This document shows, in pieces, positions 15,671 through 61,274 of a stretch of DNA of 64,000 bases. A program made the position numbers and the translations under genes. The notes under the pieces are model-generated. The model was given only the letters and a program-made list of their open reading frames with translations, did not search any database and had not been told where the DNA came from. Within the stretch, counting starts at the first letter, position 1; each line of letters begins with the position of its first letter. The stretch is from assembly GCA_029641185.1 (NCBI GenBank), contig JAPWGK010000004.1, positions 806,001 to 870,000 on the forward strand, given 5' to 3'. Source of the DNA: Pseudofabraea citricarpa (taxonomy: Eukaryota > Ascomycota > Leotiomycetes > Helotiales > Dermateaceae).

Positions 15671-18600
15671 TCAACCCTGAGACTCAATTCTGGGTCTCTT
15701 GGCTCCTCCCCTAAATGACTCATGCGACGGCTGTTGCTTCTCAAAAGCCCTAACAATTGTCAAGACGGATTGGGCGATCATCTTAGCAATAGGAGGTGGA
15801 AGAGCCTGAAGGGCTATCTGGAACTGGCGATGATCTTTATCGAAGAAGAAAAAGTCATCAGGGAAACCCTGCAGTCTCGCAAGTTCGCGAATGGTGAGAA
15901 GATCGCCTCGAGCTATCAAGTAGTAAGTACAGCGGTCTTAACTGTCAACAAAGGGCCAAGGACTTACTGGGGTGACCTAAAGAGGTGTAACAAGGATCGA
16001 TTTGTGGTCGAAAGTCAATAGCTGTCGCGTCAAAGTTCACAACTTCTAACACTTGGCCATCTGGATTGTAACCCGTGCGATGGTTGTAAATATTGGCGGT
16101 ACCGTCGGGGAGTGCGCAGATGGAGCTTATTTCGCCATTCATATTTTCGCGCTGATTCGCAAACGACAGATCTTCTATGCGGTCTCTAATGCTAACAGGA
16201 ACTGCCCTCGAAGGTTCCACCCAGGGCGAGGCGGCGAATCGGGGGGAGCCGATCAGAGCAATGATGGTGCGATCTTGGGGAATGCCATGATCAGGGAGAT
16301 AAATCTTTCTTAAATTGACTGAACGGCCAGATTCGAGCAGCGTAAGAATAAAATTGGCGAGTCTCGGGAAGGCCTTTTCGTGAAGGATGCCAGATGGCAT
16401 AGTTACAACGACAAAAGCGTCACCCCCCAAAGTCTCCAGAACAGAGTTGCTGAGATTGTTCAGCGGATTGAGGAATTCTTTCAAACTAGTTTCCGTAGCA
16501 TCCTTATTCCCGGTCAACGAGAATCGTTCGTTAGGTCCTGTTATGAGTAACACCTTTGGGACATCGTTTGCGAAGGTTATTGGTGGAGCTAGCTTTTGGT
16601 TGGAGAAATCCTCGAAAGTAGCTTCTGGGCTAGTGTCATAAAAGCTTGCTTCTTGATATCTCGCCTTGGCTTGTTAGCAGAGAAACACAGGCTGAATTTT
16701 GTTACTGACCTTCCATGTCATATTGTCGTCCTTCGCAAAGTTAAAACCAGCAAAGACGTCAAATTCAGCTTGCACGAAACCTTCACAGGCACCCAGGACA
16801 TTTGATGTCGTGTCGTAGACAAGAGGCCTGCTGGAGTAGGGATACTGTGGGGTCTTCCGTCGAAACTTTGGTTGGAGAAGATGGGCAGCGATCGGTGTTA
16901 GGCATGTGGAGCTTGAGTCGTCTTCGTTGCGAACCGCAAAACGACAAAAGAAATCTTCTCCTTCCACAGCTTCATCGCCTTGTACCTGTTAGTATAATTT
17001 GCTAAGTAGTTTTATTGGCAAAGCTAACTCACCTTTAAACAGAGCCCGCACGTAAACAAGAGGAAATTCTGGCATGTGCATCACTCCGACGTGCTCAGCG
17101 TCGTGAAAAATATCGCCAATCTCAATGACCTCGGCATCATGCTCGGTTCCCATCTCTTTATCGTTAGTAAAATGAAGAATCAGCTCAAATTCGGGATTCT
17201 CAACCGCAGCAAATGCTGGTATCTGTGTGGCGGGTGAGTATTTGGTGACAACAAGTTGTACTGAGCTTGCATTTTCCTTTGATCCACTGAATGCGTGTAT
17301 GAAGACGATACATTCCATAGTCTTTTGAGGGGACTGCGTAGTTTTCAGAAGTAGCCGGTAATACTCGCCTTGCCTAATCGTACAATTCAGCTGTTCATGA
17401 AATAAATAGCCGCCGCCCCGATCCTGCCCCTAAATGGTTGTCAGTAGTTATTGCGATTTGAGAAAGCTCTCTGTCTTACCTGTTGCTTTAGAATACGGGT
17501 CCTGCCAAAATTCTGCAATGCGGATTGGAGCTGTGTTGTCTCCCAGGTTTTCCAAGCAGCATCTTCCTTCGGCTGTCCTGACCGAGCTGTTATTTGATCA
17601 GCTTCTGTTGCCCAACCGATGGAAGTATAAGATAAGGCACATACCTTCGATGTCGTTAGCAACTGTTTGGAACCATGTTCTTCCCGTAGAGACGCTTCTG
17701 GCTTGAGATACTGGAGCTGGGCTTGCATCATATAGATTGGAGAGCTCGGAGGGTGCTGGCTTGCTTAAAGTTGGTGAGATATTGTAATTTTCAACGGAGT
17801 TTTCCATGTCGACATCGCTATCATCGTCGTCATCAGACTCAACTGTTGGCGCCTCATATCTAAAATTAGATGGAACATTGTTGGCCGCTGGTCTTTGAGG
17901 AGATACAGTTGCACGTGCCGCCCGACTCCGCGGTCTTTCGGCTGCAGGAGGAAGGCCATAAAAAGTCTGATCGCCATGGCGAGCAACCATGGGAAAATAC
18001 CACTCCAGCGGATCCAAATTGGGGAAGATAGCTTGCTTTTCTTCCTGCGATACAAGTTGCTGAGGACAACCGCACACTGCCGTATGTTGATCGTTGATAT
18101 CTTCTTTCTGGTCGTTCCCTATTTCAGGCTGGTATTAGTCAACAACCCCATTCAGTAGACGGGCTTTTAGACAAATATGGTTGCGAACGAAAAGCTGTCT
18201 GTGTTACGAATATACTCACCTAATTTGTATAGTAAAACCTCTCTTTCCATGGAGCACTTATCCTCGCAATGGAGTATGACGACGTACTTCATCAGAGAAC
18301 CATAGCACTTGGAAAACATTTGACTTTCGTTGTCCATCCAGGTGACTTTGAGTTCGCCAACTTTATCTGTTTGCATCAATTGAACGCAAGGCATTTGTCT
18401 CAGCTTGATCTGAACATCTGAGCGAAGGGTTTTCTTCAAGTCAGTTATGAGGCTCTGGCCAAGATCTAGTCGCGTAAGGACATCGTTCAGGGCTATCTCG
18501 TATAAGTCTTCAACCACATGCTGGCAGGTAAACTCCTGAGCCTGGCCTGTCATGGAGTCAGACATGAGCTTCAAATCACAGCTTGCACCTTCGTGAATCT

Positions 18601-20240
18601 TCTTCATGTCTAGCCATCTCTCGTGAATTTTGATGACCCCACTCAGAGGCAGGAACAGAAGCTGAATCGCTTCGTGTACAGCAACGCCGCCCTTGACAAA
18701 GACAATTACGTTATTTCGAGTATGGATATTCAGCTGCATAGCTGCGCTTAGACGCCTCTTGATATTGATTGAGAAAGGCGTATCCGGAGTTGACGACACC
18801 TCAGAATTCTTGAACATTTCTGTGAGATATTCTTGCGGTGACTGGATGAGTTTAAAACGTCTAAGCAGGTTCCAGAGCGATTCCGGGAGTCTAATCGGGT
18901 CCTTGTTTAGCATTTTTCGAATCAATTCGACGTCCTAATATAATATCAGCATTGCGGTTGAGCTTCAAGTGAGAATTAACAGACCTCGGCACCAGACTTT
19001 TCTGAAAAGTAAAATCCATTGGGCGCTCGACCATGCAGGTTTTGCCAGACCATCTTGGCAATTTCTTCCTTGACAGTCTTCTCTGCGAGATGAACATCCG
19101 GTGTCTTGGGATGGTCTTTGAGCAAATTGACATATTTCTGCAGTACATGATCACCCTCTGCTTGGATTGCATGCTTCCAGATGTTGGCAAACTGATCAGC
19201 TTCATCTGCGGGGTTAGACAAGCGTTGTCTATCTCGGTTGACCTTCCCCTCTAGAAAATTATAGCCGTATTGGAGAGGGTCGTTAGAAGAGCTCGAGGAA
19301 GAGAGGCGAATACCCTTGAGGTAAATTGCACCTGAAAACTCTTTGTCAAAGACCAAATCGCCGTACTTGGTTTTTATCATAGCTGAATTGGCTGGCCGGC
19401 CGTATCCTTCGATGTCGAAAGAAACCTTCAGCCACGACAAGAAATCTTCCTTCGAGATCTTGATGCCCTTCCCCATGACCCTTCCAACCGTGACGGAAAC
19501 GTCTTCCCAGATGTGAGATGTGAGAGTCCTAGGACGCGAAGAAGCACTTGCGGCCTTCGCTCGTTGCTGGTCCAGCTTCGCTCCTTTTGGTTCTGTCACT
19601 CGGCAATGGAAGCCAGTCATCGAGTCCTTGTTCTTAAAGCCGAAGTTCAAGTAGTATGAGCTAGTACAGTATCTGACCCGATAGCCATGGCGGCTCAGGA
19701 TCAAGGCACCAACTTTGAAACCTTCGCCGTGTACTCCAGCTAGGTCTTTCTGTCCTTGTTTGGTTGTACCTCCCAGTTCCAGGTTTGCGGCGGTTAACCT
19801 GGCCTTGAAATTGGTGAACTCAATGTTACCTTTAACTTTGTCGAAGCGGATATACCCAAGTAGTTTCCGACGAGAGCTGTTGTGTTCTAGATCACTCGGG
19901 TGACGGATCGTGACGACGATCTCCTTTGCCTTTTCTGGTTCCAGCTTCGCACGGTATTGTCTAGGGCCCAGCTTGAATGATGCTAGAATACCATCTTTCC
20001 TGGGAATTTATGAGCAGCTGCAAATTTAGAGCCGCATAGGACTTACTGATTCTGAAGAAGCTCTCTGATAGCATCTTGCAAATCCCAGCCCCGAACATAG
20101 GATTTACCTAGATTCATTGGCCATATACCAGGCCGCAGTGCGTCTGCACCAGGTGCAATGACCTGCTCTTTGTGGAACTCTTCATCATCGGAGAAGTATC
20201 CTTCCTCGGTGTCGCTCGAGCGATCATTATTGCCATCCAT
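15671..20240 (-). CDS. GHKL ATPase-like / degenerate C5-DNA-methyltransferase fusion (copy A)
   Basis: Nine exons: 20047-20240, 18985-19999, 18220-18934, 17645-18118, 17480-17586, 17033-17390, 16710-16978, 15968-16664 and 15671-15912. They sum to 4071 nt, 1356 aa, with all phases consistent. Residues 55-170 carry a GHKL nucleotide-binding signature. There is an N-box AIRELLQNQKD (E60, N64, D67) and a glycine lid GVHGEGFKVG (153-162), as in MORC/Hsp90 ATPases. The usual DxGxG box is replaced by IEFTNFKA. The middle holds an acidic linker and a BAH-like segment (weak). The last ~330 residues follow C5-methyltransferase order. Motif I is GACEGF. The PCQ loop reads ITGPNERFS (1088-1090 PNE, so no catalytic Cys). 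ENV is lost. Motif VIII GIPQDR and motif IX IRELARLQGFPDDF are intact. It is probably nuclear and non-catalytic as a methyltransferase; its function is inferred only. Confidence 0.82.
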
Positions 20241-30368: not shown

Positions 30369-33300
30369 ATGGCGGAATACTGGCCCCCTTCTAAGGAACA
30401 TCTTGTGGGCACCGTTCTCGAACCCGGCCACTACACGCTGAAACCGGGTGCGTGGCTTATCAATCTTGCCTATTCAGCTAGCAATCACTGGTCATTTCAT
30501 GATGCTATAGGAGAATTGCTACGAAACCAGTAAGCTACCATCTTCCTGGGGTCGCGAGTACCATTGTTTGCCATTTCTAACAGCTAGTAGAAAGGACGCT
30601 ATCATGAAGACTTTTGCTCTTGAGCCTAGAGAATACCTAGCCGTGGTAGAGGTGGATAACGAAAACCAGATCGTCTTAGCAATTCGGCATCCGACTTTCG
30701 AAGAAGACTATAGCATAAATGCAAACAAACAACTCCTTGGGTACATTAGTTTCGACAAGGAGAAACGCACCATTGAAATCGCCAATCTCGAAGCAAAATT
30801 ATCCCTCCGAAACATGCAACTGGGCGGCATAACAAAGACATCCGATCAACAGAGCCTTGGATTTCATGGGATGGGTCTGAAGCTCGCAGTCCAGCACTTG
30901 CTAAAAGGAGACTGCGATGTTCAGTATGCTGCTAATATTTACACTTGGACTTTTGAACTTCTGGGCTCGATGACGAATCCTGGTCTGGTCTGTCACCTCA
31001 AGCCGGACAGCAAGAAAACCCTGAAAGAAAAGAAAGACAAATTTGCAGAACAAAGAGGGGAATCAAGAGGCTTCACCTCTAACATTTGGGAGGATGTGTC
31101 TGTTCTCGTCAACTTGAATAAGAGAAACTTCACAGAGGATGATTTCTTGGAATTGCTTCATGTTTCTTTCGATACTAAAGACATTGGAAGACCTGCAGAG
31201 CAGGATATTATCAGGTCCAGTTTTGGAGATGTCGTTCTAGATAAAAAGTTCGAAAACATGGTCTTCTTGCGAGGAATTCGACTTAATACTGCGAACAATG
31301 GAAGACGACGTCTCAAGTACGGATACAATATCATTATGGATAGTCGCCATAATAGTCATGATCGGTTTGATGCCTTTAACAACGCTGGGTTCTTTTGCAA
31401 TGTTTATATGGGTGGTTATGAATCGACGAAGCTTAAGATCAAGTTATTGGATACATACATCGCTTTATTGAAGGTTCATCCAAAGTATGCAGAAACACAT
31501 CGGGCTAAGGAGATGCTCGGAGTTGCAGCAATTATAAGGATCTGGAATCGCTTGAAGGAGACATCCAACGATGGTTTCTATGTCTCCGAGGGAATTGGAC
31601 TTGAGGTATGTTCACGTCGCTAATCACTCTAAAACGAGCTAATTGTTTACATCTAAAGGAACTCGATTTCGCCCAGAATGTTTTAAAAAGAGATCCTATT
31701 TTACTCTCTGATTTCTTTTGGGGCCTTCTCAGACGACCTTATCCAATGCTTGCCAGAACACCACGAGAGTATGGAACTATGCTGTTTGATCAATCCCCTG
31801 CTGCGCGGCTCCCTGAAGATTCTTTTTCAATGGGGATTGAAAGAGGACTTAAGGCAGCCATGACCCTCAGCACATATACGAACCGTATCAACATTCTATA
31901 TGTGGTTGGGGGAGATGGTGATGACGACGCAATTCAATTGAAGTTTGATCCATCACAGCTTCAGGTTAAGGTCCACTCCCGGTGGTTGAGTTTCGATGAC
32001 ATGCACCGTCAAAGTCCCTGGATATGCTCTACATATGGAGATTCTACCTTTTGTTATCATGTCATTGAAGAGTTGTACAGACTTTTACTGAGCACAATCT
32101 ACAAGCATCATGGCTTACGAGAGAGTCGGCCTGCGGAAACCGAAAAGAATCTATTCAAGACACTGAAAAGCAAGGTTAACGAAATGCCAAGCTTGATAAA
32201 AGTTGAACCGACAGGGGTTTCTGGTGAGCTTCAGGTGAGTTGGATCACTAATGATAGCAGTTCTCATCCACTTCACGCTCATAAACCGTGGGTCGTTCTA
32301 CACCGTGAGAGAACTTGCTTTGATAAGAGAGAGCATTTACTAGCTAGTAAGATTCCCCTTTACCATTTATTATCATTTGTTCGTTCTGCTCTGACTAACC
32401 ATTCATCAGAGGTTGAATTTGAGCCTCATTCCGAGGGTGAAGTCTACGCTGGAACACATCAACGAAGAGCTATCTGCGGATGCTTTGTGATTGCAGATAT
32501 ATGCTCTCATACGAAACTCACATTCAAGGGTCTGAATAACGACGAGCTCTACTTTCCAATGGTAGCCAGTGATGGCCAGGAAGGGTTTTATGGAGTACCG
32601 CCCCCTTCCGTGAAGCCACAAACTAGCCACATTGGACCAAGCTCTTCCACCCCTACGTCCTCGCTACGCCTGAATCCGATTAATAATAATTTTAACGACG
32701 CTACTCCTTCAGCGGCAAGAATTCCAGACCAATTGAAGCCTGACTTGAATTCCAAACCTGTTCTACAACTCAACGAGGATGCTGAGTGGAACTCGTGGGA
32801 GGAGCTAATTTTGCCTTCGGCATTCGGAAACTTTGTGTCTGACAGACTACCTAAAATTGAGGCAAGTTGAATGGCAAAGCTTGTGTAATGATGACTAAAT
32901 TAATTACAGGTTCATCCAGCGTATGTCCGAGCAAGATATGATGATCGTCTTGACTTCACATTCAAGCGAGGAGAGTACTATCAGATCAAATCACGACTTC
33001 ATCAGAGAGGAAAAACAGTCAACTATATTATCTTGGTGCATGGTGTAATAAAACCAGAAGTACAAGATCAAACAAACAAGCTCCTAGTTACGAGATACTC
33101 TTTCTTAGCATCATCTTCCATACTGGACAGCAGCGACAAGCCTTTTCTCGACCCAACAATCTATGGAAAAGAATTGATCTTACATTTCTCTGAATTTGAA
33201 GAAATGGGTACAGAGTCTGATGCTGAGATCATGTCAACTGATCAATTTGTTCATGATGATAGTAATCCGGGCGTTGTTCATCTTCCAGAATTTCCCCTTG

Positions 33301-34703
33301 TCTACTCTGCTCAACTTCAAAAAGGTACGTTGGTTTTCTGTTGACCTCCACAGTATGCCATGTATACGAGCAGTTTCTGATGTATTTATATTCAGATACG
33401 GACGACCATTTCTGTCGCTTCGCTATCCATGCTGGGGTTGACGACAAAACAGCCTGGCTAACGCCTATTGGACCTCACCTACTCCAACCAAAAGATCGTC
33501 GAAATAACCCTGAATATCAGTATCCTTGCAGTCCTCTTCTTTGGGATGTAAATTCTGAGGTATTAGGCGCGTCGGAGGGCTTCTCGCAATTGAATTATAT
33601 GGTACAGGCTGGATTTAACTTCGACAAGAATAATAACATGACTTGGAAGGTTGGTAGAGGCACTCCATCTGGTTATAGTTCTTACTAATCAAAGAAAAAG
33701 GCAAGATATTCAGAAGCGACCGTCTATGATACTTCTCTGGCTGCCACAATTACGGATATCTCGAAAGAACATATCATAGGCCCTGATAATCTAGGACCTG
33801 AGACACCTCGAATTTTACTTATATCAGGAGCGAATAATCGATTCCATCTGACTGGCGACTTGAAAGATCAGGAGTCATCCCTGGATCAGTTCCTTAAGCC
33901 TATAAAGGACTTGCGCCCAAGAATAATCAATGGACTTGATCCTGATGATCTTGTCATTCTGGCAATGTCACCTGCGATTCTCCACGAGAGGGCAATCACA
34001 GTCTTTCAAAAGGCAATACTCGATCTTCTTGAAAGTCGAAGATCAGTACATATGAGAAAGATATACCTCCCTGAGTTGGGGATTCCGCAAGAGCGTACTA
34101 TAATCACTCTCGTCGGATCACATCCTGTGCACTTCTCTCCTTGGGCTTTAATTCCACCTCTCCCAAATCCGATCACGGTAGGGGATTTAATAGAAGATCT
34201 CTCATTTGAAAGTCGACGATCAAAGATCGATGGTCATTCTAGTTATGTGTGCGCAATGCCGAATCTCGAAGGAAATATCTACAATCATCAAACTGGATAC
34301 ATGATCGACGATTCAACTACTGTCGAAGTAGTCGATTTCGCCTCAACGGCCATGCGGCTTGGACCACAGCTTGGCCCGAATTATGCTTTTCTCAAACATC
34401 CCAGTAGGCCACTTCTCAGCCGTTCCCTTTTTATATTCTCCCATGCTAATGATTGCGGTTCGTGTAGCACGAAATGACTTTCTTACCGTTCGCGAGATTG
34501 CTCGATTGCAGGGCTTTCCGGATAATTTCATCTTCTACGACGATGATAAACGCCAGCTTCAACAGGTCATCGAAGCTTTACCACCGCCTGTCGCCAAGAT
34601 GATTGCTGCATCGGTTATGAACATCATCAAGAACTTTCGCAAGGATGACGACTTGGAGGAAGTGGAGTTTAGAGGTCGGAAGCGTGCAAGGGTTGATACT
34701 TAA
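30369..34703 (+). CDS. GHKL ATPase-like / degenerate C5-DNA-methyltransferase fusion (copy B)
   Basis: Eight exons: 30369-30529, 30591-31605, 31659-32346, 32410-32861, 32910-33324, 33396-33649, 33701-34403 and 34468-34703. They sum to 3924 nt, 1307 aa. The domain order equals copy A. N-box AIGELLRNQKD (E49, N53, D56) spans the first intron exactly as in A. The glycine loop is LGFHGMGLKLA (143-153), and the DxGxG box is again absent (IEIANLEAKL). There is a shared ELYFPMVA..G..GFYGVPPP segment and a conserved EMGTESDAE / MPEFPLVY / HFCRFA block. The methyltransferase-like end has GASEGFSQ for motif I, ISGANNRF in place of PCQ (1039-1041 ANN), GIPQER and VREIARLQGFPDNF. Intron 4 (32862-32909) has a GC donor. 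Intron phases match copy A except that one A intron is missing here. The second exon is 1015 nt in both. Confidence 0.82.
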
Positions 34704-41141: not shown

Positions 41142-42617
41142 CGAAAGCGGAAGTATTTTGGAAGGACTGGTATCCCATATTTTTCACGAACCGGCTGTAG
41201 ACGCAAATAATATAATAATAATACAGAGGTGACCAGCACCGTTGAAGAAGAATAGGATAGGGAAGACCGGGACGAAGCAAGAAAAGATAATCAAATCAAT
41301 CACATGCGGAAGGATGACGACGGCGTCGCTCCGGCACTCCATCATGCCAAGAGGCTCCAAACTCCGTCTGGAGTCTCGACACCTTTGGAGGCCGATTCCT
41401 CCATCTCCAATGCCGGGAAATCAATCCCACTGGTGCATTCACTGCATTGGCCTACAAGCAGGAGCAGATCTGCGTATCTCGCCCCGCTGGGTTAGTGGGG
41501 CCCGCTTCAGGAAAACGTCTCGCTTAGCCCCAAATAGTTGTGCACGCAGCCCGTCGCAATCCGTGCCGCGTTACAGCCGTCGCTTAATACCCGGGTTGTT
41601 TTACTTGATGTTTGCCATTTCGTTGTGACTCGTCTCCAGTTTCTGAGATTTCGAGGTTTGAAGATCTCCAGCTGCCGGTCCAGACGCGGAAATATCTCGG
41701 CGTTGGGGTTTGACTCTTGTAGAATTACTGATAAGCCCCACCACGCCCTGCTGTGTCATCCATCTACTCTATGTCGTCCTCTTTGCCTATCCACAAATGG
41801 ATAATGAAAATCACTCAAATTTTTCTTTTTTTCCATTCTGAGGCTGTGGATCTATTGAAATGTCTTGGCAAACAGCAGAATAGTCAACGAAGCAAACTTG
41901 GATTGAATGTATGCTCAATCCAAGGAGTCAGTTGCCACATGCAGGCATTATTTGACAAATAACAGTCTGACTAGTCACCGTTGAAGTGCATATGTAGATC
42001 AGCACTCTGATTAATTATTAGATCTACTATTTTCAAGTGGACCCCTCATTCGGCGATATTTATGTCACAAAGTGGTTGCGACACGGCACAACAGCTATCC
42101 CGCTGTCAAATTTCCTCTGTTCTGAACTGGCCATCCACCCCGCCACGAAAGAAAAAAAGAAAAACAATTAGGAAAAAGAAAAAGAGCACGACTCTCAGAC
42201 CGGTGTTTCTATTGTCTCGCCAAATAGCATGTACAATCTCGTGCTCCACAAGCTACATATCGAGTATCAAACTTTATGAAAGCGGTTGCATTGTCGGTTC
42301 CTGGTGTCGTGCTATTTATTAGTCCTAAGAATCCGATCGGGGCTATTTTTGATATCTAACCGCTTATTGTAGTGGAGGAAGTCTGAACCGATACTGCCCG
42401 GTGGTGTCTTAGCTATTACCTGCAGATCGTTATAAGAGGGGAATCACTCACGCTACCACAATTATAGGAACTGGGTTATCCTAGATTCCTTAGTGTCCCA
42501 TTCAACTTTATACGTTATATTCCACAAAATATACCAGCACTACTTCGTAAACCTAGTGATTTCAGTAGATATTTAATAAATTATAGAGGTTAGCCTCCGG
42601 CTAAACTAACCTCTTAG
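41142..42617. other. Intergenic up to the A+T-rich block
   Basis: It is the 5' flank of the transporter gene and then the transition to A+T-rich DNA. Composition is gene-like to about 42500. Short open frames lack supporting features. Confidence 0.5.
42585..42614. repeat. Perfect-armed hairpin at the edge of the A+T-rich block
   Basis: Outer arms AGAGGTTAG (42585-42593) and CTAACCTCT (42606-42614) are exact reverse complements. A second inner pairing TAGCC/GGCTA (42591-42595, 42599-42603) encloses TCC. It sits where normal sequence gives way to the A+T-rich block and could be a terminal inverted repeat remnant. Confidence 0.7.
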
Positions 42618-43659
42618 AATATACCTAAAAAAAAAAAAAAAATTATCGATTATTTTTATTTTATACCCTCTTACGACCTAATTATATAATTATCTTCGGG
42701 TTTTATTAAAATTATATAAGGGTTATAATTTGCTTATATTTTATTATAATTATTATATTTTAGAATACTAGGATTATAATTTCTTCCTAGCTATTATATT
42801 CCCTCTAATCTTTTATAATCTCTCTCCTAATATTCGTAATATTAATAAAGCTAATTTTATTTTTATCTTAGTAGATATCTAATATTCTAATTACCTTATA
42901 AAAATCTTCGATTATTTATTATAAGTAAACCTTTATAAAAGCTAAATATTAAGAAATATTTATTTTTTTATAGTTTTAATTATTAGAAATTAGAATTAAT
43001 AGGATATTTTATTATTATATTATTAGACTAGTTTAGCTTATAATTATAATAAACGCTTATTTATTAGAAGCTTTTTACTTAATATAATATATAATATTTT
43101 ATTAAACTAAAATATTTAAACGATTAATTTAAATTATATAACCTTAAAATTTAATATTAAATAATATATAATAAGAGAATATCTAATTATTAAGTAATAT
43201 AAATAAAAAAGATATTTAAATATAACTAGTTAAATTTAATTAATTCTAATTTATTTAATTATTTAATATTATTAGAAGCTAGGATATAAACTAAAAAAAT
43301 TTAATATTCTAAAAACGAAAGAATATAAGAAGAATTAATAATTCTTTTTTAGAAATAATATATCCTAAGATTAAAAATAATTAATAGAAAAAGTAAAGAT
43401 TATTTATTACTTAATAAAAAGATATTAACTTTTCTTTTTATATAAATCTTAATTCTAAGATTAATCTTTCTCTTAATAATAATAATAAAAATAAGTAAGT
43501 AATTTTATTATATTTTCTCTAGATATTTTATTATATTTTTTCTCTTTTTTATTTTCTCTTTCTTTTACTTTTTATCTAACTTAGTATCTCTTATAAAAGT
43601 TATTATCTTTTATAGATTATTATATTATTTTAATCTAAAATCTATTAAGTAAATTTCTT

Positions 43660-43870
43660 TTAATTAATTTTAACTTTTAAGATTATCCTAATAACTTATT
43701 TTCTAAAAAAGCTTAATTTATTATTATAAAACCTAATTTTATTAAGACTTTATTATTAAAATAACTTTTTTCTTTAAAATAAGTTAAAGATTCTTATCTT
43801 CTTTTATTTTATTACTTAATATTCTACTAATTTTTTATAGATATTAGACTAAAAGCGTATTATTAATTAT
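43660..43870 (+). repeat. Dispersed A+T-rich repeat, copy 1
   Basis: Shares an extended similar stretch with 44988-45200 in the same orientation, including TTTATTATTATAAAA and AAGACTTTATTATTAAA. The differences look largely like transitions. It is an unidentified degraded element. Confidence 0.55.
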
Positions 43871-44987
43871 AATATTTATAGGAATATTAAAGAAACTAGT
43901 AAAAAGGTAAAATATATTTTTAATTATAATATTATAATTATAAGTTAATAACTTATCTTTTTTATAGTTTTTCTAATAATTTTAAGTCTTATAATATTAA
44001 AAATTTAGTTATTTCGAATTTTTAGAGGAAATATTAGCTTAAACCTAAGAATTAATCTAGATACTAAGCTAATTCTATTATTTATTAATAAATTCTAGGT
44101 TAAAATTAAAAAAAGTAAAATAAATAAAAATAATAAAAAGGAATTCTTAGTATTATTAAAGATTCTTAGTAATTAAGTTAAGAATCTTTTAGGAGATAAT
44201 AAGTATATAAATCTTATAAAAATATTATATTAGAATATAATTCTAGTAAAATTTAATATTAAAAAAACGTTATTATATTTCTAAATATTTTTTATTTATA
44301 TAAGTAACTAGGGAGGAAATTAATCTAAGTAAAAAAGATTATTACTAATAATTATAAAATATAAGTTTATACTAGAATTTAAGTATATAATAATATTTTT
44401 AATTTATTTCTATTAAGAATTAAAACTCTCTAAATTTAAAAATCTTATAAAAAGCTAAATAAAAGAATAATTTATAATAAGATATTATCTTAAGATTATT
44501 AAAAATAATAGAAAAAAACTTTTTATAAATATATTCTAAAATTAATTTTCTTTTATTAAAAATTTATATTCTTATAAATATTATTTCTAGGATTTATATC
44601 TACTAAGAATAACTACTAGATTTAGCTAATACGTATATCTTAGGTAACTTAACTAATATATTACTTAAATCGCTACCTAAATATAAATATTTATATATAT
44701 TAGTTAACTTTCTCTTTTTTCTAATAAAAATATTTATACGTCTTAATAAATTTTTTTCTTATTTTATTAATTATATTTATATATATTAACTTATCTTTTC
44801 TCTCTTTTAATAAGAATAATCTTATAAATAATAAGTATAAATTTCTATTATCTCTTAATATTCTTTTATTTTCTTCTTTTTTTATTCTCCTTTTATCTTA
44901 TTATTTTTTCTTATATCTCCTCTTATATATTAGTTAATTAATTATCTTTTATAAATAATCTATAGATTTTATTATAAAATAATTTAA

Positions 44988-45200
44988 GTAAGTTTTTTTC
45001 TTTAGATTTTAATTATAAAAGTAATTCTAATAATTTATTCTCTAAAAAAATCTAATTTATTATTATAAAATTTATTTTTATTAAGACTTTATTATTAAAC
45101 TAGATTCTTTCTTTAAAATAAATTAAAGAAATTCTTTTTCTTTTACTTTATTATATAATCTTCTATTAATCTTTTTTAGATATTAAGATTAAGATATAAT
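44988..45200 (+). repeat. Dispersed A+T-rich repeat, copy 2
   Basis: Partner of the copy at 43660-43870, about 1.3 kb away and in direct orientation. Confidence 0.55.
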
Positions 45201-46002
45201 AATCTAGGTTATATTAATTTCGATCTTCTTTTAAGTAAGAAAAATACTAGTATAATATATAAATATAATATTAAGGTTACTAGTTAATATATTTATCTTT
45301 TAGTTAGTTTTTTTAATAAATCCTTTAAGATTATATTATACTCTAAGTTATATTATTAGATAAATTTAATAAAATTACCTTTAACCTTATTATATAACTT
45401 ATTATATATCTAATTAAATTAATTATAATAAAATACTAGGTTTATAATTTAAGTAATATTAAGATTATAAAAGATCTTAATTATTATAAGTTTAATTAAA
45501 AAGTAATTAAGAATTAAGCTAAGAATTATAAGAGTAATAAAAAATATATAACCTTAGTAATTATTATTAAAAATAAGATTATAATAATTAAATTTAATAT
45601 AAAAGAAATAATAAAGTAATTCTAAGTACTTTTAGGTTTAGAGTTTAATAATATTAAGAAATTAGAGAAAAGAAAATAACTAAGAAAATTAATTAAAATA
45701 TATAGATTTATATTATAAATTACTAGTAAAATAATAAGTTAAGATTTCTTTAACTAGTAATTTTAATCTAAATAAATTTATAAATCTATAAAAAAAAAAA
45801 TCTAAATATAAATAATAATATTTTCTTATTCTTTTTAATATTAAAGTTAATAAGTTTAAACTTTTTAGTAAATATTATTATAAGACTTTTACTTTTATAT
45901 ATCCCCTAGAATTCTTAGGTAACTCCTTATAAATATTTTAATATATTTTTAAAGTATATTATATAATAGAATTTTAGGATTTCTAGCTTAATTTTAGTCT
46001 AA

Positions 46003-46258
46003 AATATATTATATAATAAAATTTAAGGGTTAAATTTTATTATATAATATACTTTAGACTTTAATTTTAATAATAAACTAATATAAATAATAAACGAATA
46101 TTTGATATATTATATAATAAAATTTAACTCTTAAATTTTATTATATAATATATTCTAGACCTTAATTTTAATAATAAACTAATATAAATAATAAACGAAT
46201 ATTTGATATATTATATAATAAAATTTAACTCTTAAATTTTATTATATAATATACTTTA
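46003..46258. repeat. ~102-bp tandem units, each with a ~50-bp palindrome (3 copies)
   Basis: Each unit contains arms ATATTATATAATAAAATTTAA and the reverse-complement arm around a 3-nt loop, followed by a spacer with AATAATAAACTAATATAAAT. Palindromes start near 46003, 46106 and 46207. Two further copies lie at 47028-47182. Confidence 0.8.
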
Positions 46259-46539
46259 GATCTTAACTTAATAATAAACTAGTATTTAGTAATACTAAGT
46301 ACGTAATATAATAAAACTTAAGAGTTAATAGCTTTAATTCTAGCTAATATATAAGAAGAATTTTATTAAATAATAAAATAATTATTTCTATAAAAAGTTA
46401 AAAGTCTACTTATTTATAATAAGATATTTATCTAATTATAAGCTAATTATTTATCTAAAAACTTAGAAGTTTACTTATTTATAATAAGAGGTATTTTAAA
46501 AGCTATTTTATTTATTATAAAATTATAAAAATTATAATA

Positions 46540-46812
46540 ATAACTAAAATTAGAATAATAACTAAAATTAGAATAATAACTAAAATTAGAATAATAACTA
46601 AAATTAGAATAATAACTAAAATTAGAATAATAACTAAAATTAGAATAATAACTAATAATAAAATTAAAATAATAACTAAAATTAGAATAATAACTAAAAT
46701 TAGAATAATAATTAAAATTAGAATAATAACTAAAATTAGAATAATAACTAATAGTAAAATTAAAATAATAACTAAAATTAGAATAATAACTAAAATTAAA
46801 ATAATAACTAAA
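46540..46812 (+). repeat. 18-bp satellite array
   Basis: About fifteen copies of AATAATAACTAAAATTAG in head-to-tail order. They are interrupted by a few variant units that carry an extra AATAAAATTAAA. Confidence 0.9.
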
Positions 46813-47027
46813 TAATTTTATATATTCTTAAATAGCTTATATAAGTATCTTCTTACCTCTTATTTCTTTTTATTATTAGTTATCTAAAATAAAACTAGGT
46901 ATAAGATTTATTAGTTATAAAAGATTAATATTAAATAATAAGATAAAAATCCTAAAATTTTATTATATAATATACCCTAGACTTTTAATTTAAGTAATAA
47001 ACTAGTATAAATAATAAACTAGTATTT

Positions 47028-47182
47028 AATATATTATATAATAAAATTTAACTCTTAAATTTTATTATATAATATACCTTAAATATTTAATTAGAATAAT
47101 AAACTAGTATAAATAATAAACTAATATTTAGTATATTATATAATAAAATTTAACCCTTAAATTTTATTATATAATATACCCT
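47028..47182. repeat. Two further copies of the palindrome-bearing unit
   Basis: Same inverted arms and spacer (AATAATAAACTAGTATAAAT) as at 46003-46258, separated from them by the 18-bp array. Confidence 0.75.
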
Positions 47183-47274
47183 AGACGTTTAATTAGAGTA
47201 ATAAACTAGTATTTAGTAATATTATATATATTAATTAAAAAAATTAGAAGCTAATAGCTTTAATATTAGCTAAT

Positions 47275-47582
47275 ATATAAGAAGAATTAAACGTTTCTTA
47301 GTAGTTATAACTTATTTTATTATAATCTAAAACCCTCTTATTATATTTTTATAAGAAAAATTAAATATTTCTTAGTAATTATAACTTATTTTATTATAAC
47401 CTAAAACCTTCTTATTATATTTTTATAAGAAAAATTAAACGTTTCTTAGTAGCTATAACTTATTTTATTATAACCTAAAATCCTCTTATTATATTTTTAT
47501 AAGAAGAATTAAATATTTCTTAATAATTATAACTTATTTTATTATAACTTAAAACCCTTTTATTATATTTTTATAAGAAAAA
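47275..47582 (+). repeat. ~74-bp tandem repeat, 4 copies
   Basis: Units read roughly AAGAAGAATTAAACGTTTCT, then TATAACTTATTTTATTATAA, then a CCTCTTATTATATTTTTAT end. Copies differ by transitions such as ACG/ATA and AGC/AAT. Confidence 0.85.
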
Positions 47583-47744
47583 TTAATTTAAAGAAGATAT
47601 TAAAACTAAAGAAAGCTTTATAAGTAATAATAAGCTAATTTTTTCTCTTAAAACTTAGAAGTTTATTTATTTATAATAAGACGACTTATATTAAATTTAT
47701 TATAATAATATAACTTTTAAGTATAAAAAGAATAAGAGGTATAT

Positions 47745-47845
47745 ATTTACTTATATATTATATATATACTTATATATTATATATATACTTATATATTATA
47801 TATATACTTATATATTATATATATATTTATATATTATATATATAC
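47745..47845 (+). repeat. 18-bp TA-rich tandem repeat
   Basis: About five copies of a TATATATACTTATATATT-like unit. Confidence 0.85.
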
Positions 47846-48056
47846 TAAAAGCTAGGAATTCTAGTAGTTTATAATAAGATAATACTAATACTTTTAAGAT
47901 ATTACTTAATTATAATAAGATATTTAAGAAGCTTATTTACTAGAATATACTAAAAACTAAGAATTCTAATAGTTTATAATAAGATAATACTAATATTTTT
48001 AAGATATTACTTAGTTATAATAAGATATTTAAGAAGCTTATTTACTAGAGCTTAAG
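47843..48056 (+). repeat. ~104-bp tandem duplication
   Basis: Two adjacent copies begin TACTAAAAGCTAGGAATTCT and TACTAAAAACTAAGAATTCT. They run through the same TTTATAATAAGATAATACTA core to AAGCTTATTTACTAGA. Confidence 0.85.
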
Positions 48057-51000
48057 ATTTATAATTCTTTTTATTATATACTTAGATTATCTTTTTATTA
48101 GCTTTAGCTCTTAACTTTAGTTTATTTTACTAATAACTTTAATAAAAAATATATTAAACTTTTCTTAAATTACTAATCTTTTTCTTCTTTTTCTTCGAGT
48201 ATATAATAGAGATTAAACGTACTAGTAATATATAATCTTTTATTTTAACTTAATTTAAAGATAATATTATTTTCTTTAGGTAAAATAATTATAATAATTA
48301 TTTAAGGAGTTCTTAGAAGGATTAAAAGTTTTATAATAAGCTTCTTTTTTTAAGTAACTAACTTTTTTTAGTATATAAGATATTATATACTTAGAGCTAT
48401 TATCTAAGTCTTTTAATTTATAATTATTTCTTTTATACTTTTACTTCTTAGTAATTATTTTATTAATTTAGCTAATTTAATTATAACTTATCCTCTTATA
48501 ATTATAAACTTTATTTTTCTTTTTAGTCTAAAGAATTCGGTTTCTCTCTTTTTATTAGTAATATCTAGTAAATCTCTTAGAAATATATTATTATTATTAT
48601 TAGTCTTTTCGAACTTTTTTTAATTTTACTTAGGTTTTTTAAATAATAAAAATCGAAACTAATATCTATTATTTTATTTAGATATTACTAAAATAAATCG
48701 TATATCTTATATAATTTCTAGCTAATAAGAATCTTAGCTCTTAGGTATAACCTAAGTTTATTAAGTTTTATAAGATCTTTTATCTTAGTAATATTACTTA
48801 TTTAAGAATATAATATATATAAAACGTAATATATTATAAGAAGCTTTTTAGTATAATCGCTTTTTTCGTTACTTTTATTATTTTATAAGTAATCTCTTCT
48901 TTTTTTTTATCTTATAATCGAAAATTTTATAAAATTTTAAGACCTTCTTATTATAATCTCTAGTACTAAGAAGTTTATCTTTAGGATCGTTCCTTAGTAG
49001 ATCGTTTTTATCTACTAATATTATATTTTAAGGAATCTTATATTCTAATAATTCTTATAAATCTAAATATCTTTTTTTAAATTTCTTTAATTCTCTTAAA
49101 CCTTTTTATTATTATTAAATACTTAATTTAATTATTATAAGTTTAATACTAAAAATACGTCTTTTTATAATTTCTAGTTTATCTTTTAATAATTAATTTT
49201 TTAAGAAGTTAATAAAAAAAATATAAGATTAAAGAAAATTTAGCTAACTAAAAGCTAGAAAATAATTAACTAGAAGATAAGATTTAAGAAATTTTAGTTA
49301 ACTAAAAGCTAGAATATTAATTAACTAGAGACTAAAATATTAATTAACTAAAAGCTAGAATATTAATTAACTAAAATATATATTAACTAAAGTTAATTAA
49401 AAGATACTTAATTAGTATAAACTTTTCTAGCTTCTCTCTATTATATACGTCTTAAATCTCTTCTATTTTATCTTTTATTTAAGATATTAAATCTCTTTTT
49501 ATTTATTTCTTATTCTAAGAGATATAAATCTTTTCTTATTTTATTTCTTATTCTAAGAGATATAAACTTCTTCTTATTTTATTTCTTATTCTAAGAAGTA
49601 AATTTTCTAGCTTCTCTTATTATATATCTTAAACTCTCTATTTATTCTTATTTAAGAGTAAATATCTTTATATTTTATTTCTATTCTAAGAGGTAAATTA
49701 AAGTAAAAATAAAAGTAAAAGATATATTTATATATAACTAAAAATATTTAATTAACTCTTTTCTCTTTTCTCTCTCTTTTTTTACTCTTAATAATAATAC
49801 TTAGATAAAATAATTAGAATTTATACCTAAGATTTAGTTTCTTAGAATAAGTAAACTTATTAAACTTATATTTAATCTTAGAGATAATTTCTTTATTCTT
49901 AATAAATTTACTAGTTATATTAAACTAATATATAATCTTAGAGAAACTATAGGTTTATAAAAATAATTATATAATAATAATTATATTTATAATAAAATAA
50001 ACTAAATATATATTCGTCTTAAGTTATATATTATTCTTATTATTATATAAGTATAATTATAAGATCTTAGAATCCTTAGAAGTTATCTTTTCTTTTTATA
50101 TTATCTTAGTTATCTTAGCTAAAATTTTATTAGTTAATTTACCTAAGATAAAAGAAATCTTAAAAAATCGATATAATATAAGTTATATATTTTAATTAAT
50201 CTTAATTATTATAATCTAGGTTAATTTTCTCTTTATATTATAAGAGAAAGATTTTCTTAAACTAAAGTAAGTAATTTTTCTAATATATTATATATTAAAA
50301 GAAGGTTTCTAAGAGTTATTCTTAGTTATAAGATAATAATTCTTCTTAGCTTACTTTTATCCTTAAATACCTAAGCCTAAGCTATTATAAAATAACAAAT
50401 AAATACTTTTTAGCTTATAATTAAATATAATATAATTAGGTATATCTAAAAAATTAAGTAAAGCTTAAGTTTTAATTAATTAAGTTAAAGTATATTATTT
50501 ATAAAAAAGAATAATACTAGAAGCTAGGTTAAAAATAATATTAATAATTAGGTTAATTAAAGAAAAAGATATTATAGCTAAAATACTTTTATTAGTAATA
50601 AAAGTAAAATAAAAGAATAAAAGAAATAAATTATAAAAGATTATTTTTATTATAAGTAATATTAAAAGAAGAGATAAAATTTAGCCCTAGTAATAATACT
50701 AAAGCTAGTTAAGAGACTAAGTATTAAATAAGTTAATAATATTTAAATATTTAATAAATAAATAATTATTTACTAGGAACTTATATATCTAATAAATTTT
50801 ATTAAGTATTAAGTAATATTATAAGATATTAGCTTTTTATAAAGAAAGTAAAAAGAATTAAATATATACTTCTTACTTTTATACCTAAACTAGAAGATTT
50901 ATTTATATTTTCTAAAAATATTATCTTCTTAATAAATATCTTTTTAATTAATATCTCCTTAACTAATATCTCCTTAATAAATCTTAGAAAAATATTAGTA

Positions 51001-54000
51001 AGTAAAATAAATTCGATAAAAGGCTAAGCTTATCGCTTCTTATTAATAGAAATATATATTATAACTTAAAATAACTTTAATTAAAATATTTAGGCTATAA
51101 AAAATAATAATAAGTTAGATTAAAGTTAAAAAAACGATAAATATAAATAAGACTAAAGCTAAGAAATAAGATAAAAAAAGGTAGATAAATATAAAATATT
51201 TATACGTATACTTTTAGAATTTAAGTTATAATTTCGTATTATTATTAGTTAATTTATAAAAGAGAAAGCCGGATTATATAAATAATTTATTATAAGAACC
51301 TTTATTATATATAAATAATTATTTAAAATATATAAAGAGATATTAGGTTTTAAATCTCGCTTATATAAATAAAGTAAAGATTTTATAAAAATAAATAAAT
51401 ATATTTTAATTATATTATTTCCTAATATTATTTTATTACCTAAAAAAATACTAATAAAATTCTAAGGTTTCTTATTAGTTTTTTAAGGCTATTAATCTCT
51501 TAAGTTTATATAAAAAATCGGATTTTAGCTTAATAATAATATTATTAAGAATAATTCGCTTTTTAAGCTAAATACCTTTAAGTAATTTAATTCGCTTAAG
51601 CTAAATATTTAATAATATTTATTTTTAATATATTAATACTCTTAGCCTTAGCTTAATATTAATAATAATATATAAATATATAAAGCCTTAAGATTTATAA
51701 TTTATAATTATAAAAGCTATAAATATAAGAATCTAAACCTAAGTAAGAAATTTACCTTAGATAATAAACGGATATATTATTAAGCCTTAAAATAAAAAGA
51801 TTAATATTAAGCCCGGCTTAATACTAGGAAATAAATATTTAATAGAAAAATCTTTTAGTTTAAATAATAAATAAGAAAATAATTTATTATATAAAATATA
51901 TATATTATTAAAAGATATCTAATAAATTAATCGGCCTAAGTTAATAAAAGAACTAGATAAAAAGAGATATATATTATTAAAACTTTCCTTAAGAATAACT
52001 TTTTTTATTATATTAATAATCTTATTTATAAACCTAAGATTTATTATCTAGTTATTAAGAAGAATTATAAATATTCTTTTATAATATTATAAGAAGCTAA
52101 AACCTTTTTATTATTTTTTCTTTTTACTTAAAGTATTTATTAATAAATTATATTATCTTTTTTATTTATATTTAATAATTCGGTTTTTATAAGAAATAAA
52201 AGGATTTTTTTACTTTTATTATATATAAACTTATAAAGTTTTCTATAATTCTAGATTTAATATTTAATATTTTATTATAAGATTATAAAATTAAAGATCT
52301 TATTATTATATATTACGTATTCTTTTATTATATAATTATTAAGAAGATTAATATTATTAGTAATAAAAGTTAAAATATATACTTAAGTTAAGAGAACTTA
52401 AAATTTAAGGTTTTTTACTTATTATATTTATTTTATAAGAAATATAATCTAATTAAACTAAAGCTAAAGCTTTTAAATAAGTTTCTCTTAATTATCTGCT
52501 TATACTTATAATTTACTCTAAAATATATTTTCTAATATAAGTTCGAATTATATAAAGTTCCTAAGAAGAATAATTATAAGTAAACCCCTAAAAATAATAT
52601 TAGAAGATATATTTATATTTTATAATACTTTATATTTTATATTAATCTAAGTAAGATTCTTTCTTAAGAATATACTTATTTTATTTATAATTATAATTCT
52701 TTTTCTAAGAATCTTTTAATATATTACTTATAATATTTTACTAATATTTACTTAACTACTACTAAGACTACTAAGCCTAAGGGTTATATAATATATAAAT
52801 CTACTAATATTTATAGTAATTATACTAGTTATTATATAAAAGATAATTTTATTATATTAGCTAATAATCTTAAGATTATATAAAAATATCTTAATTAGAT
52901 AAATCTTTTTAACTTCGTTTTAGCTACTAATATATTATAAGAGTTAATCTAAGGAGGATATAACTTATACTTTTATATATAAGATATAACTTAGCTAAGT
53001 TTAATAAAATTTCTTTTATTTTTTATTTAGTTAAAATTTAAGAAATATTAGCTTATATAAATTATTAATACTCTAATTATTTTACTACTAAGTTTATAAA
53101 TAAGTAATAGATATAAAAAGATCTTAAGACTTTCTAAGTTTAGTCTTAAAACTAATACTAGTAAATATTATAATTTTTATATTATAAAATTCTTCTTAGT
53201 TATTAGCTAAGATTATAATCTTAAGTATTTTTAATCTTTTTTAAAGTAATTAAATATCTTTAGAAAAAATAAAATATATATAATCGGTTAATAAAAAGAA
53301 TTTATTAATATTATTATTAGGTTATTATTAGTTAAGAAATCGATTATTTCTAGAAATATCTTTAATTTTAAGAGCGATAATATTTATAGTTTTTTATTCT
53401 TATAAAAAATCTCTTATTACTTTTATTTAATATTAGTCTTTTACTTTTTAATTATTCTAGATCTTAAAAGCTAACTTATTATTAATATAACTTTTATTAT
53501 TAAATATACGATTTTTATATTTTTTAATCTTAGTATCTTTCTTATAATAATTTTTATTTATCTTTTTTTTACTTTTATTTAAAAGAGTTATATTTTTAGT
53601 AAGTTTTAATAAATATAATAAAAGGGAAATAAATATCTTAGCTTATAAGTTTAGTAAAAAATAAATTCGATTATTATCTAAGAAATCCTAATAAAAGATA
53701 ATTAATCGATCTTATAAAATAAAAAGACTTAAGAAAACTAAGTAAATATTATCTTCTAATTTATTAGTTAATATCTAAATTCGTATTTTATTATTATAAT
53801 TAAAGAAAAATCTAAGAAGAGATAATATATTAATTATTAAAAGACTTTTAGTATTAATCTAAATATATAAGATATATAATAAATATAAAATATTAAAGTA
53901 ATAAAAGAATATATATTTTCTAACTTTTTCTCTTAAAATATAATTAATATAAGAAGCGTACTCGTATAAATAAAGAAAATATAACTAAGACCCTTAAGAT

Positions 54001-54929
54001 AAGTAATTTTAATAAATAATTATACTTTTTCGATTAAAAATATATATCTAATATTACTTATTATTATTTTAATCTTTATACTAAGTTACTAATAATATTT
54101 CTTTCTTAGCTAAGAAAGCCTACTAAGTATATAATTTTAATTATTAAGTATTAAGAGAAATTATATAATTTAATTTTAGATAATAATATTAAGTATTATC
54201 TCTTAAAAAAGTAACTATAAAAAGTCCTCTTACTTTAATATAACTAGTAAACCGATTATATACTTTTAAAGCTTATTTATTTAAAGGAAATTAAATATCT
54301 TATTTATCTAGTAAAATTTAATCTTTTAAAACCTTTATTATTATAAGTAAAATTATAAATATAACTATTAATACTTTCGTTTTTATTATATAATTAGTAA
54401 TATAATAGATTACTAATAAGATTTTTATAAATAATCTTATAAAGATAATATTCGTATTATAATATAATATAAATAAGATTATAAGATTAAACTTATTAAT
54501 TAATATATCTATTATAAAATAATAAATCTTAATATTTTTAAACTTTATAATATAAGTTTTCTTATAAGATAATTTTAAGAGATAAAACTAATATAAAATA
54601 ATTATATATTTTTATAATTATTTTTTATCTTCTTAAGATATATTATTCTTAACTTCTTTTACTTATTATACTTCTTTTAAGAAATATATAAAAGTATAAT
54701 TATAAGTTTAAAAATATATTATAATATTATTCGTATTCTTATATATAATAATAATAAAGTTAATAATAAAAGAATCTTTAGAAAGAATTTCTAGATATAA
54801 CTTAATAAGATTAAGCTTTTACTTAGAATTTATTATCTTTTAATTAAAAGTAATTATAATAATTAAGTTAATAAACTTAAGAATATATTTTTAATATTAT
54901 AAATCTTCTTAAATCTACTAAGATAATTT

Positions 54930-55274
54930 TATTACGATTCTTATATAAGTTACTTAAGATATATATTATATATTTACTTCTCTTATATATTTTACTTATC
55001 TTATATTATAACTTATTAATCTAAATTATATAACTAGAAATTTACTAAGTAGAATAAATTATATATAACTTATCTTATATATTTACTTACCTAAGAATAT
55101 ATATAATAAAGAATACTTAGAGAGTAAATACTAGTATAATAAGAAGGATTACTTATAACTAGCTTCTTATATTTTCTTTTTTTTTCTTTCTTTTTTTCTT
55201 CTTATACTTAGATCTTTTATTATTAATTAGTTATATTAATCTCTTATTTATTTTATATTTTATATATTATAATA
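54930..55274 (+). repeat. 5' LTR of the Ty3/Gypsy element
   Basis: Aligns with 60930-61274 over 345 positions with no indel. I count roughly 27 differences by eye, all C/T or G/A transitions in both directions, as expected if RIP hit the two copies separately. Confidence 0.9.
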
Positions 55275-55399
55275 TTATCTAAGTATTATCCTTTTACTTT
55301 TATCTTAATAAAAATAATAAAAATATATACGAACTTATAAAACTTTTATATTTTATTATATAAAAATCTAGATTCTTATATTTACTAAAAGTTATAATA

Positions 55400-60898: not shown

Positions 60899-60929
60899 TA
60901 TAAAAATTAAACGCTTAAAGGAAAAATAA

Positions 60930-61274
60930 TATTATAATTCTTATATAAGTTACTTAAGATATATATTATATACTTATTTCTTTTATATATTTTATTTATC
61001 TTATATTATAACTTATTAACTCGGATTATATAACTAGAAATTTACTAAGTAAAATAAATTATATATAATTTACCTTATATATTTATTTACCTAAGAATAC
61101 GTATAATAAAGAATATTTAGAGAGTAAATATTAGTATAATAAGAAGAATTACTTATAACTAGTTTCTTATATTTTCTTTTTTTTCTTTTCTTTTTTTCTT
61201 CTTATACTTAGATTTTTTATTATTAATTAATTATATTAATCTCTTATTTACTTTATATTTTATATATTATAACA
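60930..61274 (+). repeat. 3' LTR of the Ty3/Gypsy element
   Basis: Partner of the LTR at 54930-55274. It keeps the terminal CA dinucleotide and a CGG and an ACG triplet that are mutated in the left copy. Confidence 0.9.

What the first reader, a model, noticed from the sequence alone, without database searches (positions are those of the whole stretch)
15671..20240. GHKL ATPase-like domain fused to a degenerate C5-DNA-methyltransferase domain
Seen: one 1356-aa gene with an N-box (AIRELLQNQKD) and glycine loop (GVHGEGFKVG) at the N-terminus, and methyltransferase motifs VIII and IX (GIPQDR, IRELARLQGFPDDF) at the C-terminus. Known: fungal C5-methyltransferases described to date (DIM-2, RID/Masc1, DNMT1-like, DNMT5) do not, as far as I know, start with a GHKL ATPase. 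MORC proteins are GHKL ATPases that compact and silence chromatin. Inference: this is a MORC-like silencing factor that acquired a methyltransferase fold, possibly as a DNA- or methylation-reading module.
Basis: partly seen in the sequence, partly recalled or inferred. Interest (0 to 1): 0.88.

Follow-up and report, generated by a model that had tools for sequence, protein, structure and literature searches.

The report
ATPase-like fold fused to dead methyltransferase
A fungal gene joins an N-terminal part predicted to fold like the ATPases of the Hsp90/MORC superfamily to a DNA-methyltransferase domain that has lost its catalytic residues, a combination also found in two classes of filamentous fungi; it would likely serve in the nucleus as a silencing factor that reads chromatin instead of methylating it.

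Summary
A nine-exon minus-strand gene (20240-15671; 1369 aa in my model) has an N-box, a glycine-rich loop and C5-methyltransferase motifs VIII, IX and X. A paralogue (30369-34703, plus strand) aligns end to end; its seven introns match the first gene's in phase, six at the identical column and one two columns away. So this is one gene, not two. Relatives occur in Sordariomycetes, Eurotiomycetes and Leotiomycetes, the full fusion in the first two. AlphaFold2 models of Colletotrichum relatives give a GHKL fold (closest listed: Hsp90-type), fibronectin-III-like, BAH-like and DNMT1-like methyltransferase domains. Sequence profiles confirm the methyltransferase (HaeIII E 5e-18). In 12 of 12 members with that domain the catalytic Cys and Glu are absent, yet it is the best-conserved part between the paralogues (51%). 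The GHKL part keeps the N-box and loop, but the DxGxG motif is absent in 17 of 17, with an invariant Asn. MORC membership is therefore not shown. Most likely it is a nuclear, non-catalytic silencing clamp; function is inferred. Ten searches of open papers showed no description. A saturated RIP-like block starts 8 kb beyond the paralogue.

The parts
15671..20240 (-). Gene A: nine exons 20240-20047, 19999-18985, 18934-18220, 18118-17645, 17586-17480, 17429-17033, 16978-16710, 16664-15968, 15912-15671; 1369 aa
   Evidence: Splice model; introns of 45-101 bases; GC3 0.50 against intron GC 0.40
19405..20135 (-). GHKL (Bergerat-type) fold, residues 36-263
19993..20072 (-). N-box AIRELLQNQKD (E60, N64, D67), split by intron 1
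   Evidence: Invariant in alignments A1 (8 of 8) and A5 (11 of 11 rows; 11 of the 17 members with an N-terminus were put in)
19795..19818 (-). Place of GHKL motif II: FTNFKARL, invariant Asn N128 where DxGxG is expected
   Evidence: Asn in 17 of 17 members, DxGxG in none; the pairing with the Hsp90 motif was made by eye
19708..19737 (-). Glycine-rich loop GVHGEGFKVG
   Evidence: HGxG in 17 of 17
19153..19395 (-). S5-like region with GAIYLKGIRL and NRDR, residues 267-347
   Evidence: Conserved across members; the S5 assignment is inferred from position after the GHKL domain
17868..18406 (-). Fibronectin-III-like domain, residues about 580-725 (interrupted by an intron)
16875..17482 (-). BAH-like domain, residues about 835-1002
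   Evidence: Foldseek to BAH domains (best E 4.1e-3, prob up to 1.00) and the BAH region of DNMT1 within the joint match
15746..16847 (-). Pseudo C5-methyltransferase domain, residues about 1012-1345
   Evidence: Profile to HaeIII MTase E 5.3e-18, DNMT1 E 1.3e-11 over motifs IX-X only; fold match to DNMT1/MET1/DIM2
16518..16538 (-). Place of motif IV (PCQ): GPNERFS, no Cys
   Evidence: No Cys at the position in 12 of 12
16389..16406 (-). Place of motif VI (ENV): VTMPSG, no Glu
   Evidence: No Glu at the position in 12 of 12
16269..16286 (-). Motif VIII GIPQDR
15851..15898 (-). Motif IX LTIRELARLQGFPDDF
   Evidence: Kept in 10 of 12; P0001 and P0016 diverge there, probably by gene prediction
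15683..15700 (-). C-terminal basic motif KRPRIE, likely a nuclear localisation signal
   Evidence: KRxR/K in 10 of 12; function inferred
30369..34703 (+). Gene B, paralogue: eight exons, 1307 aa, same architecture, more degenerate GHKL part
42600..64000 (.). Context: AT-rich block with CpA/TpG almost eliminated (RIP-like), not part of the gene
   Evidence: GC 0.12-0.16 from 44 kb on; 8 CpA and 4 TpG in 44001-64000

Best explanation
The gene encodes a member of a family of filamentous ascomycetes in which a part predicted to adopt a GHKL ATPase fold is followed by predicted fibronectin-III-like and BAH-like domains and by a C5-DNA-methyltransferase domain without the catalytic Cys and Glu, and it would likely act in the nucleus as a non-catalytic silencing clamp. 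Proposed working: the protein likely enters the nucleus by its C-terminal basic motif; the BAH-like domain would bind a histone mark and the dead methyltransferase fold would hold DNA without modifying it; two GHKL domains would then close as a nucleotide-gated clamp, perhaps A with its more degenerate paralogue B, and so compact or mark the bound chromatin, alone or by bringing in the genome's RID-like and DIM-2-like proteins. Shown: gene structure, homology, the missing residues, conservation. Predicted: the folds. Inferred: nuclear location, DNA and histone binding, dimer, silencing.
Confidence: 0.45

Rival explanations
1. Dead-methyltransferase cofactor: the protein works like DNMT3L, binding and steering an active partner (the RID-like or DIM-2-like protein of the same genome) to targets, with the GHKL part as a regulatory switch and not as a compaction motor.
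For: Catalytic residues lost while the domain is the best-conserved part between paralogues; the genome keeps four other C5-methyltransferase loci; of the three compared, the RID-like one matches the family domain best (hhalign E 1.2e-9 over 279 columns, against 5e-6 over 62 and 3.5e-3 over 56).
Against: No interaction data; the MTase dimer face cannot be judged from a model with pLDDT under 50 in much of this domain.
Confidence: 0.25
2. Pseudo-ATPase scaffold: the GHKL fold no longer binds ATP, and the protein is a static reader joining BAH and DNA-binding surfaces.
For: DxGxG absent and Asn invariant in 17 of 17; paralogue B has also lost the loop Glu and the RDR element.
Against: E, N and D of the N-box are invariant in the aligned members (8 of 8, 11 of 11), which include three fungal classes, and the HGxG loop is kept in 17 of 17, hard to explain without a ligand.
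Confidence: 0.2
3. A true MORC protein of fungi, a lineage in which MORCs were reported lost.
For: N-terminal GHKL-like fold followed by an S5-like stretch with a GxIYLKGxR element resembling the MORC motif; chromatin-type domains at the C-terminus.
Against: Strict MORC S5 motif in 0 of 17; DxGxG in 0 of 17; nearest listed folds Hsp90-type.
Confidence: 0.07
4. A decaying relic: a once active methyltransferase fusion now under no selection.
For: Catalytic motifs lost; several members lack the domain.
Against: Open frames with GT-AG introns throughout (one GC-AG intron in B), intron phases kept between paralogues, and the domain kept in two named classes plus the window's fungus, best in A/B.
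Confidence: 0.03

Closest known systems
MORC ATPases (animals, plants, apicomplexans)
   Same: GHKL-type N-terminus plus S5-like stretch, chromatin-reader domains, proposed clamp
   Different: No DxGxG, no strict S5 motif, C-terminal half is BAH plus pseudo-methyltransferase; MORCs were reported absent from fungi (PMC2292703, passages)
DNMT5 / Rad8-type (SNF2 ATPase plus C5-methyltransferase, fungi)
   Same: One protein joining an ATPase and a C5-methyltransferase fold
   Different: SNF2 not GHKL; DNMT5 is an active methyltransferase (PMC13297926 and PMC5073141, passages); domain order recalled as opposite
RID/Masc1
   Same: Best hhalign match of the three own-genome C5-methyltransferases compared, of four; a BAH-like stretch before the MTase, by eye; non-canonical motif VI
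   Different: RID keeps PCQ and EQT/EET (PMC6709928, passages); no GHKL
DNMT3L (recalled; named as catalytically inactive in a passage of PMC13297926)
   Same: Catalytically dead methyltransferase fold kept for a non-catalytic role
   Different: No GHKL, FN3 or BAH; animal lineage; DNMT3 branch (recalled)
SMCHD1
   Same: GHKL N-terminus in a silencing protein
   Different: SMC hinge instead of BAH-MTase (PMC6620310 and PMC4628070, search listing only)
Bacterial GHKL-HhH-GPD-C5-MTase protein P0017
   Same: GHKL and C5-methyltransferase in one chain
   Different: Canonical motifs (PCQ, ENV, DxG by eye), a DNA-glycosylase-like middle, no BAH or FN3 in Pfam; likely an independent fusion

Membership tests
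MORC | N-terminal GHKL fold | tested here: met
MORC | All GHKL ATP-binding motifs, DxGxG included | tested here: not met
   N-box and loop present; DxGxG absent in 17 of 17. The paper states that MORCs keep all four motifs
MORC | S5 motif GhXhhpXXRhl | tested here: not met
   Strict pattern 0 of 17; a looser GxIYLKGxR element is common
MORC | Closest fold is a MORC structure | tested here: inconclusive
   No MORC among the rows shown; absence from that list excludes nothing
Hsp90 | Hsp90 family match over the whole chain | tested here: not met
   No Hsp90 family in Pfam at E <= 1; only the fold resembles it
C5-DNA-methyltransferase fold | MTase fold with motifs VIII-X | tested here: met
Active C5-DNA-methyltransferase | PCQ Cys and ENV Glu | tested here: not met
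   Absent in 12 of 12
Active C5-DNA-methyltransferase | AdoMet motif I FxGxG and motif X GN | tested here: not met
   FxGxG absent in 12 of 12; no GN in the 10 that have motif X
RID/Masc1 | PCQ plus EQT or EET | tested here: not met
   against PMC6709928 (passages)
RID/Masc1 | Short target-recognition region (about 80 aa) | tested here: inconclusive
   105 residues between motifs VIII and IX in A (from coordinates)
DNMT5 | SNF2 ATPase in the same chain | tested here: not met
   No SNF2 match in Pfam at E <= 1
SMCHD1 | SMC hinge | tested here: not met
   No such Pfam match at E <= 1
BAH-containing DNMT (DNMT1, DIM-2) | BAH before the MTase | tested here: met
   By predicted structure of relatives; no BAH match in Pfam for A at E <= 1

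The most novel reading that the evidence does not exclude
A further class of fungal DNMT-like proteins: a nucleotide-gated clamp that uses a dead methyltransferase fold to read repeats or RIP products and a GHKL fold with an altered base pocket (Asn for the adenine-binding Asp, so perhaps a nucleotide other than ATP) to lock chromatin silent, filling in fungi the place that MORC and SMCHD1 hold elsewhere and acting as a heterodimer of A with its degenerate partner B.
Probability: 0.25. Interest if true: 0.88.

Novelty: new variant of a known kind. Interest (0 to 1): 0.74.

Why it matters
The papers on fungal DNA methyltransferases that I saw in passages list DNMT1/Masc2, DIM-2, RID/Masc1, DNMT5/Rad8 and DNMT2, and searching four of them for GHKL and HATPase found no occurrence; MORCs are reported absent from fungi. 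A conserved GHKL-BAH-pseudo-methyltransferase family would give fungi their own GHKL silencing factor, would be a fungal counterpart in principle to DNMT3L, and would offer a concrete candidate for what recognises repeats around RIP. It also warns that 'modification methylase' and 'C-5 cytosine methyltransferase', names that two of these proteins carry in databases, are probably wrong as to activity.

Tried and rejected
Pfam, NCBIfam and PDB sequence-profile searches for the GHKL part gave nothing usable; hhalign of the N-terminal profile to an own sacsin-like protein, an own MutL-like protein and P0017 was insignificant. The Morc6_S5 family search of the genome rang nowhere, controls included, so it says nothing. 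No MORC chain appears in the fold lists shown; that is not an exclusion. A zinc site (LHx4C ... CxC) was suspected in the FN3-like region, but my pattern found the first half in only 2 of 18 members, so it is dropped. The two-gene reading was rejected on intron positions and on fused relatives. A tree of the MTase domain against other DNMTs was not tried, as the divergence is too great; its origin stays open, since a bacterial-type MTase matches better than the own RID-like protein and HaeIII leads the PDB list. In that hhalign test the own C12 locus was left out, the C7 sequence was three exon pieces strung together with a gap, and single sequences served as templates. DNMT labels for the loci on C7 (DNMT1-like) and C12 (DNMT5-like) are recalled, not tested. 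The AT-rich block was checked for extent by six 3-kb samples: 0 of 6 show the depletion. Paper searches: one search was ill-formed, as its underscores were dropped, and found nothing; of the others I saw titles and starts of abstracts of the rows listed (searches list only part of their hits).

Full report
What is there. The minus-strand gene runs from ATG at 20240 to a stop ending at 15671. GC at third positions is 0.50 and intron GC 0.40.

A second copy. The genome search with PF00145 showed a second hit inside the window. It belongs to an eight-exon plus-strand gene, B, at 30369-34703, 1307 aa, which aligns with A from end to end at 39%. All seven of its introns agree with introns of A in phase, six at the same alignment column and one two columns away; A has one more. 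A search of the whole genome with A finds only A and B: 15 of 15 matches lie in these two genes. In a maximum-likelihood tree of the N-terminal 700-760 residues of 17 members A and B are sisters (99/98), B with a branch about four times as long (2.1 against 0.49).

A family. Three searches of 5.8 billion proteins, each scoring about 7,990 candidates, returned 16 relatives (P0001-P0016) and one bacterial outlier, P0017. They are from Colletotrichum and Thozetella (Sordariomycetes), Exophiala (Eurotiomycetes), Knufia, Fonsecaea and Aspergillus (placed in Eurotiomycetes from recall) and Phialocephala (Leotiomycetes). Names given by sources include 'putative modification methylase' and 'hypothetical protein'. 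Counts below use 18 members: A, B and the 16. For the N-terminus 17 count (P0010 lacks it). For the methyltransferase 12 count: P0004, P0005, P0006, P0007 and P0008 end before it and P0015 skips its first motifs, so these six were dropped. The full fusion is thus seen in Colletotrichum, in Exophiala, Knufia and Fonsecaea, and in the window's unnamed fungus; the one Leotiomycete member, both Aspergillus members and Thozetella lack it, by loss or by gene prediction.

Dead, but kept. In 12 of 12 members the Cys of motif IV and the Glu of motif VI are replaced; motif I FxGxG is absent; GN of motif X is gone in the 10 that reach it. Motifs VIII and IX and the PP of motif X remain in most. Between A and B the methyltransferase part is 51% identical and motifs IX-X 62%, against 38% for GHKL, 31% for the S5-like part, 33% for the helical part, 35% for FN3, 30% for the linker and 37% for BAH. 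Against three Colletotrichum and Exophiala members the parts of A are about equal (28-38% without the linker), so the skew belongs to the A/B pair; motifs IX-X are at 45-46% there. A C-terminal KRxR/K motif is present in 10 of 12.

Context in this genome. Besides A and B there are four loci with PF00145: C11 with SPCQGF and ENV (DIM-2-like), C41 with SPPCQ and EQT (RID-like by the EQT triad reported in PMC6709928), and C7 and C12, which I label DNMT1-like and DNMT5-like from recall. Of the three compared with hhalign (C12 left out, C7 incomplete) the RID-like one matches the family domain best (E 1.2e-9); the bacterial-type MTase of P0017 matches better still (3.4e-18), so the origin is open. 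From about 42.6 kb to the window's end GC falls to 0.12-0.16, and 44001-64000 holds 8 CpA and 4 TpG, the signature of saturated RIP; 0 of 6 samples elsewhere show it. This shows that strong RIP-like mutation has acted in this genome, not that A or B takes part.

How it most likely works. The parts suggest a nuclear silencing factor: BAH to a histone mark, a non-catalytic methyltransferase fold to DNA, and a GHKL dimer as the gate. [quoted passage not shown] Everything about function is inferred. The main doubts are the lost DxGxG motif and the absence of any experiment.

Novelty. Ten full-text searches of 5.39 million open papers (the last ill-formed) showed no description of a fungal GHKL-methyltransferase protein in the rows listed. 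In the passages seen of PMC7862722, PMC12543289, PMC13297926, PMC5073141 and PMC6709928 no GHKL-linked class appears. Subscription papers and preprints were not covered. Each kind of domain is known, the combination is not in what I saw, so I file it as a new variant of a known kind.

Noticed in passing
window 42600-64000: Over 21 kb with GC about 0.12-0.16 and near-total loss of CpA and TpG (8 and 4 in 20 kb, observed/expected 0.01): RIP-like mutation at saturation, ending before C34:880001.
   Followed up: partly
window 45960-48049: Tandem repeats with spacings of 18, 74, 101-102 and 105 bases inside the AT-rich block.
   Followed up: no
P0017; loci L039, L041, L042, L043, L046: Bacterial chain with HATPase_c_3, HhH-GPD glycosylase and an intact C5-methyltransferase; 5 of 18 loci found match it from near its start to its end (one chain or neighbouring genes was not checked), possibly an unnamed restriction or defence enzyme.
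   Followed up: partly
G000 C7:601974-602291 (L014): Another own-genome GHKL protein, sacsin-like by eye, with NNG in place of the DxG motif.
   Followed up: no
window 30369-34703: Paralogue B has lost the loop Glu (HGMG) and the RDR element and evolves faster in its N-terminal half, as might be expected of an inactive dimer partner.
   Followed up: yes
window 13049-14815, 22875-23192, 25089-27062: Neighbours: a fungal-specific transcription factor, a nitroreductase-family fragment and an FAD/NAD-binding reductase; nothing obviously tied to chromatin.
   Followed up: partly
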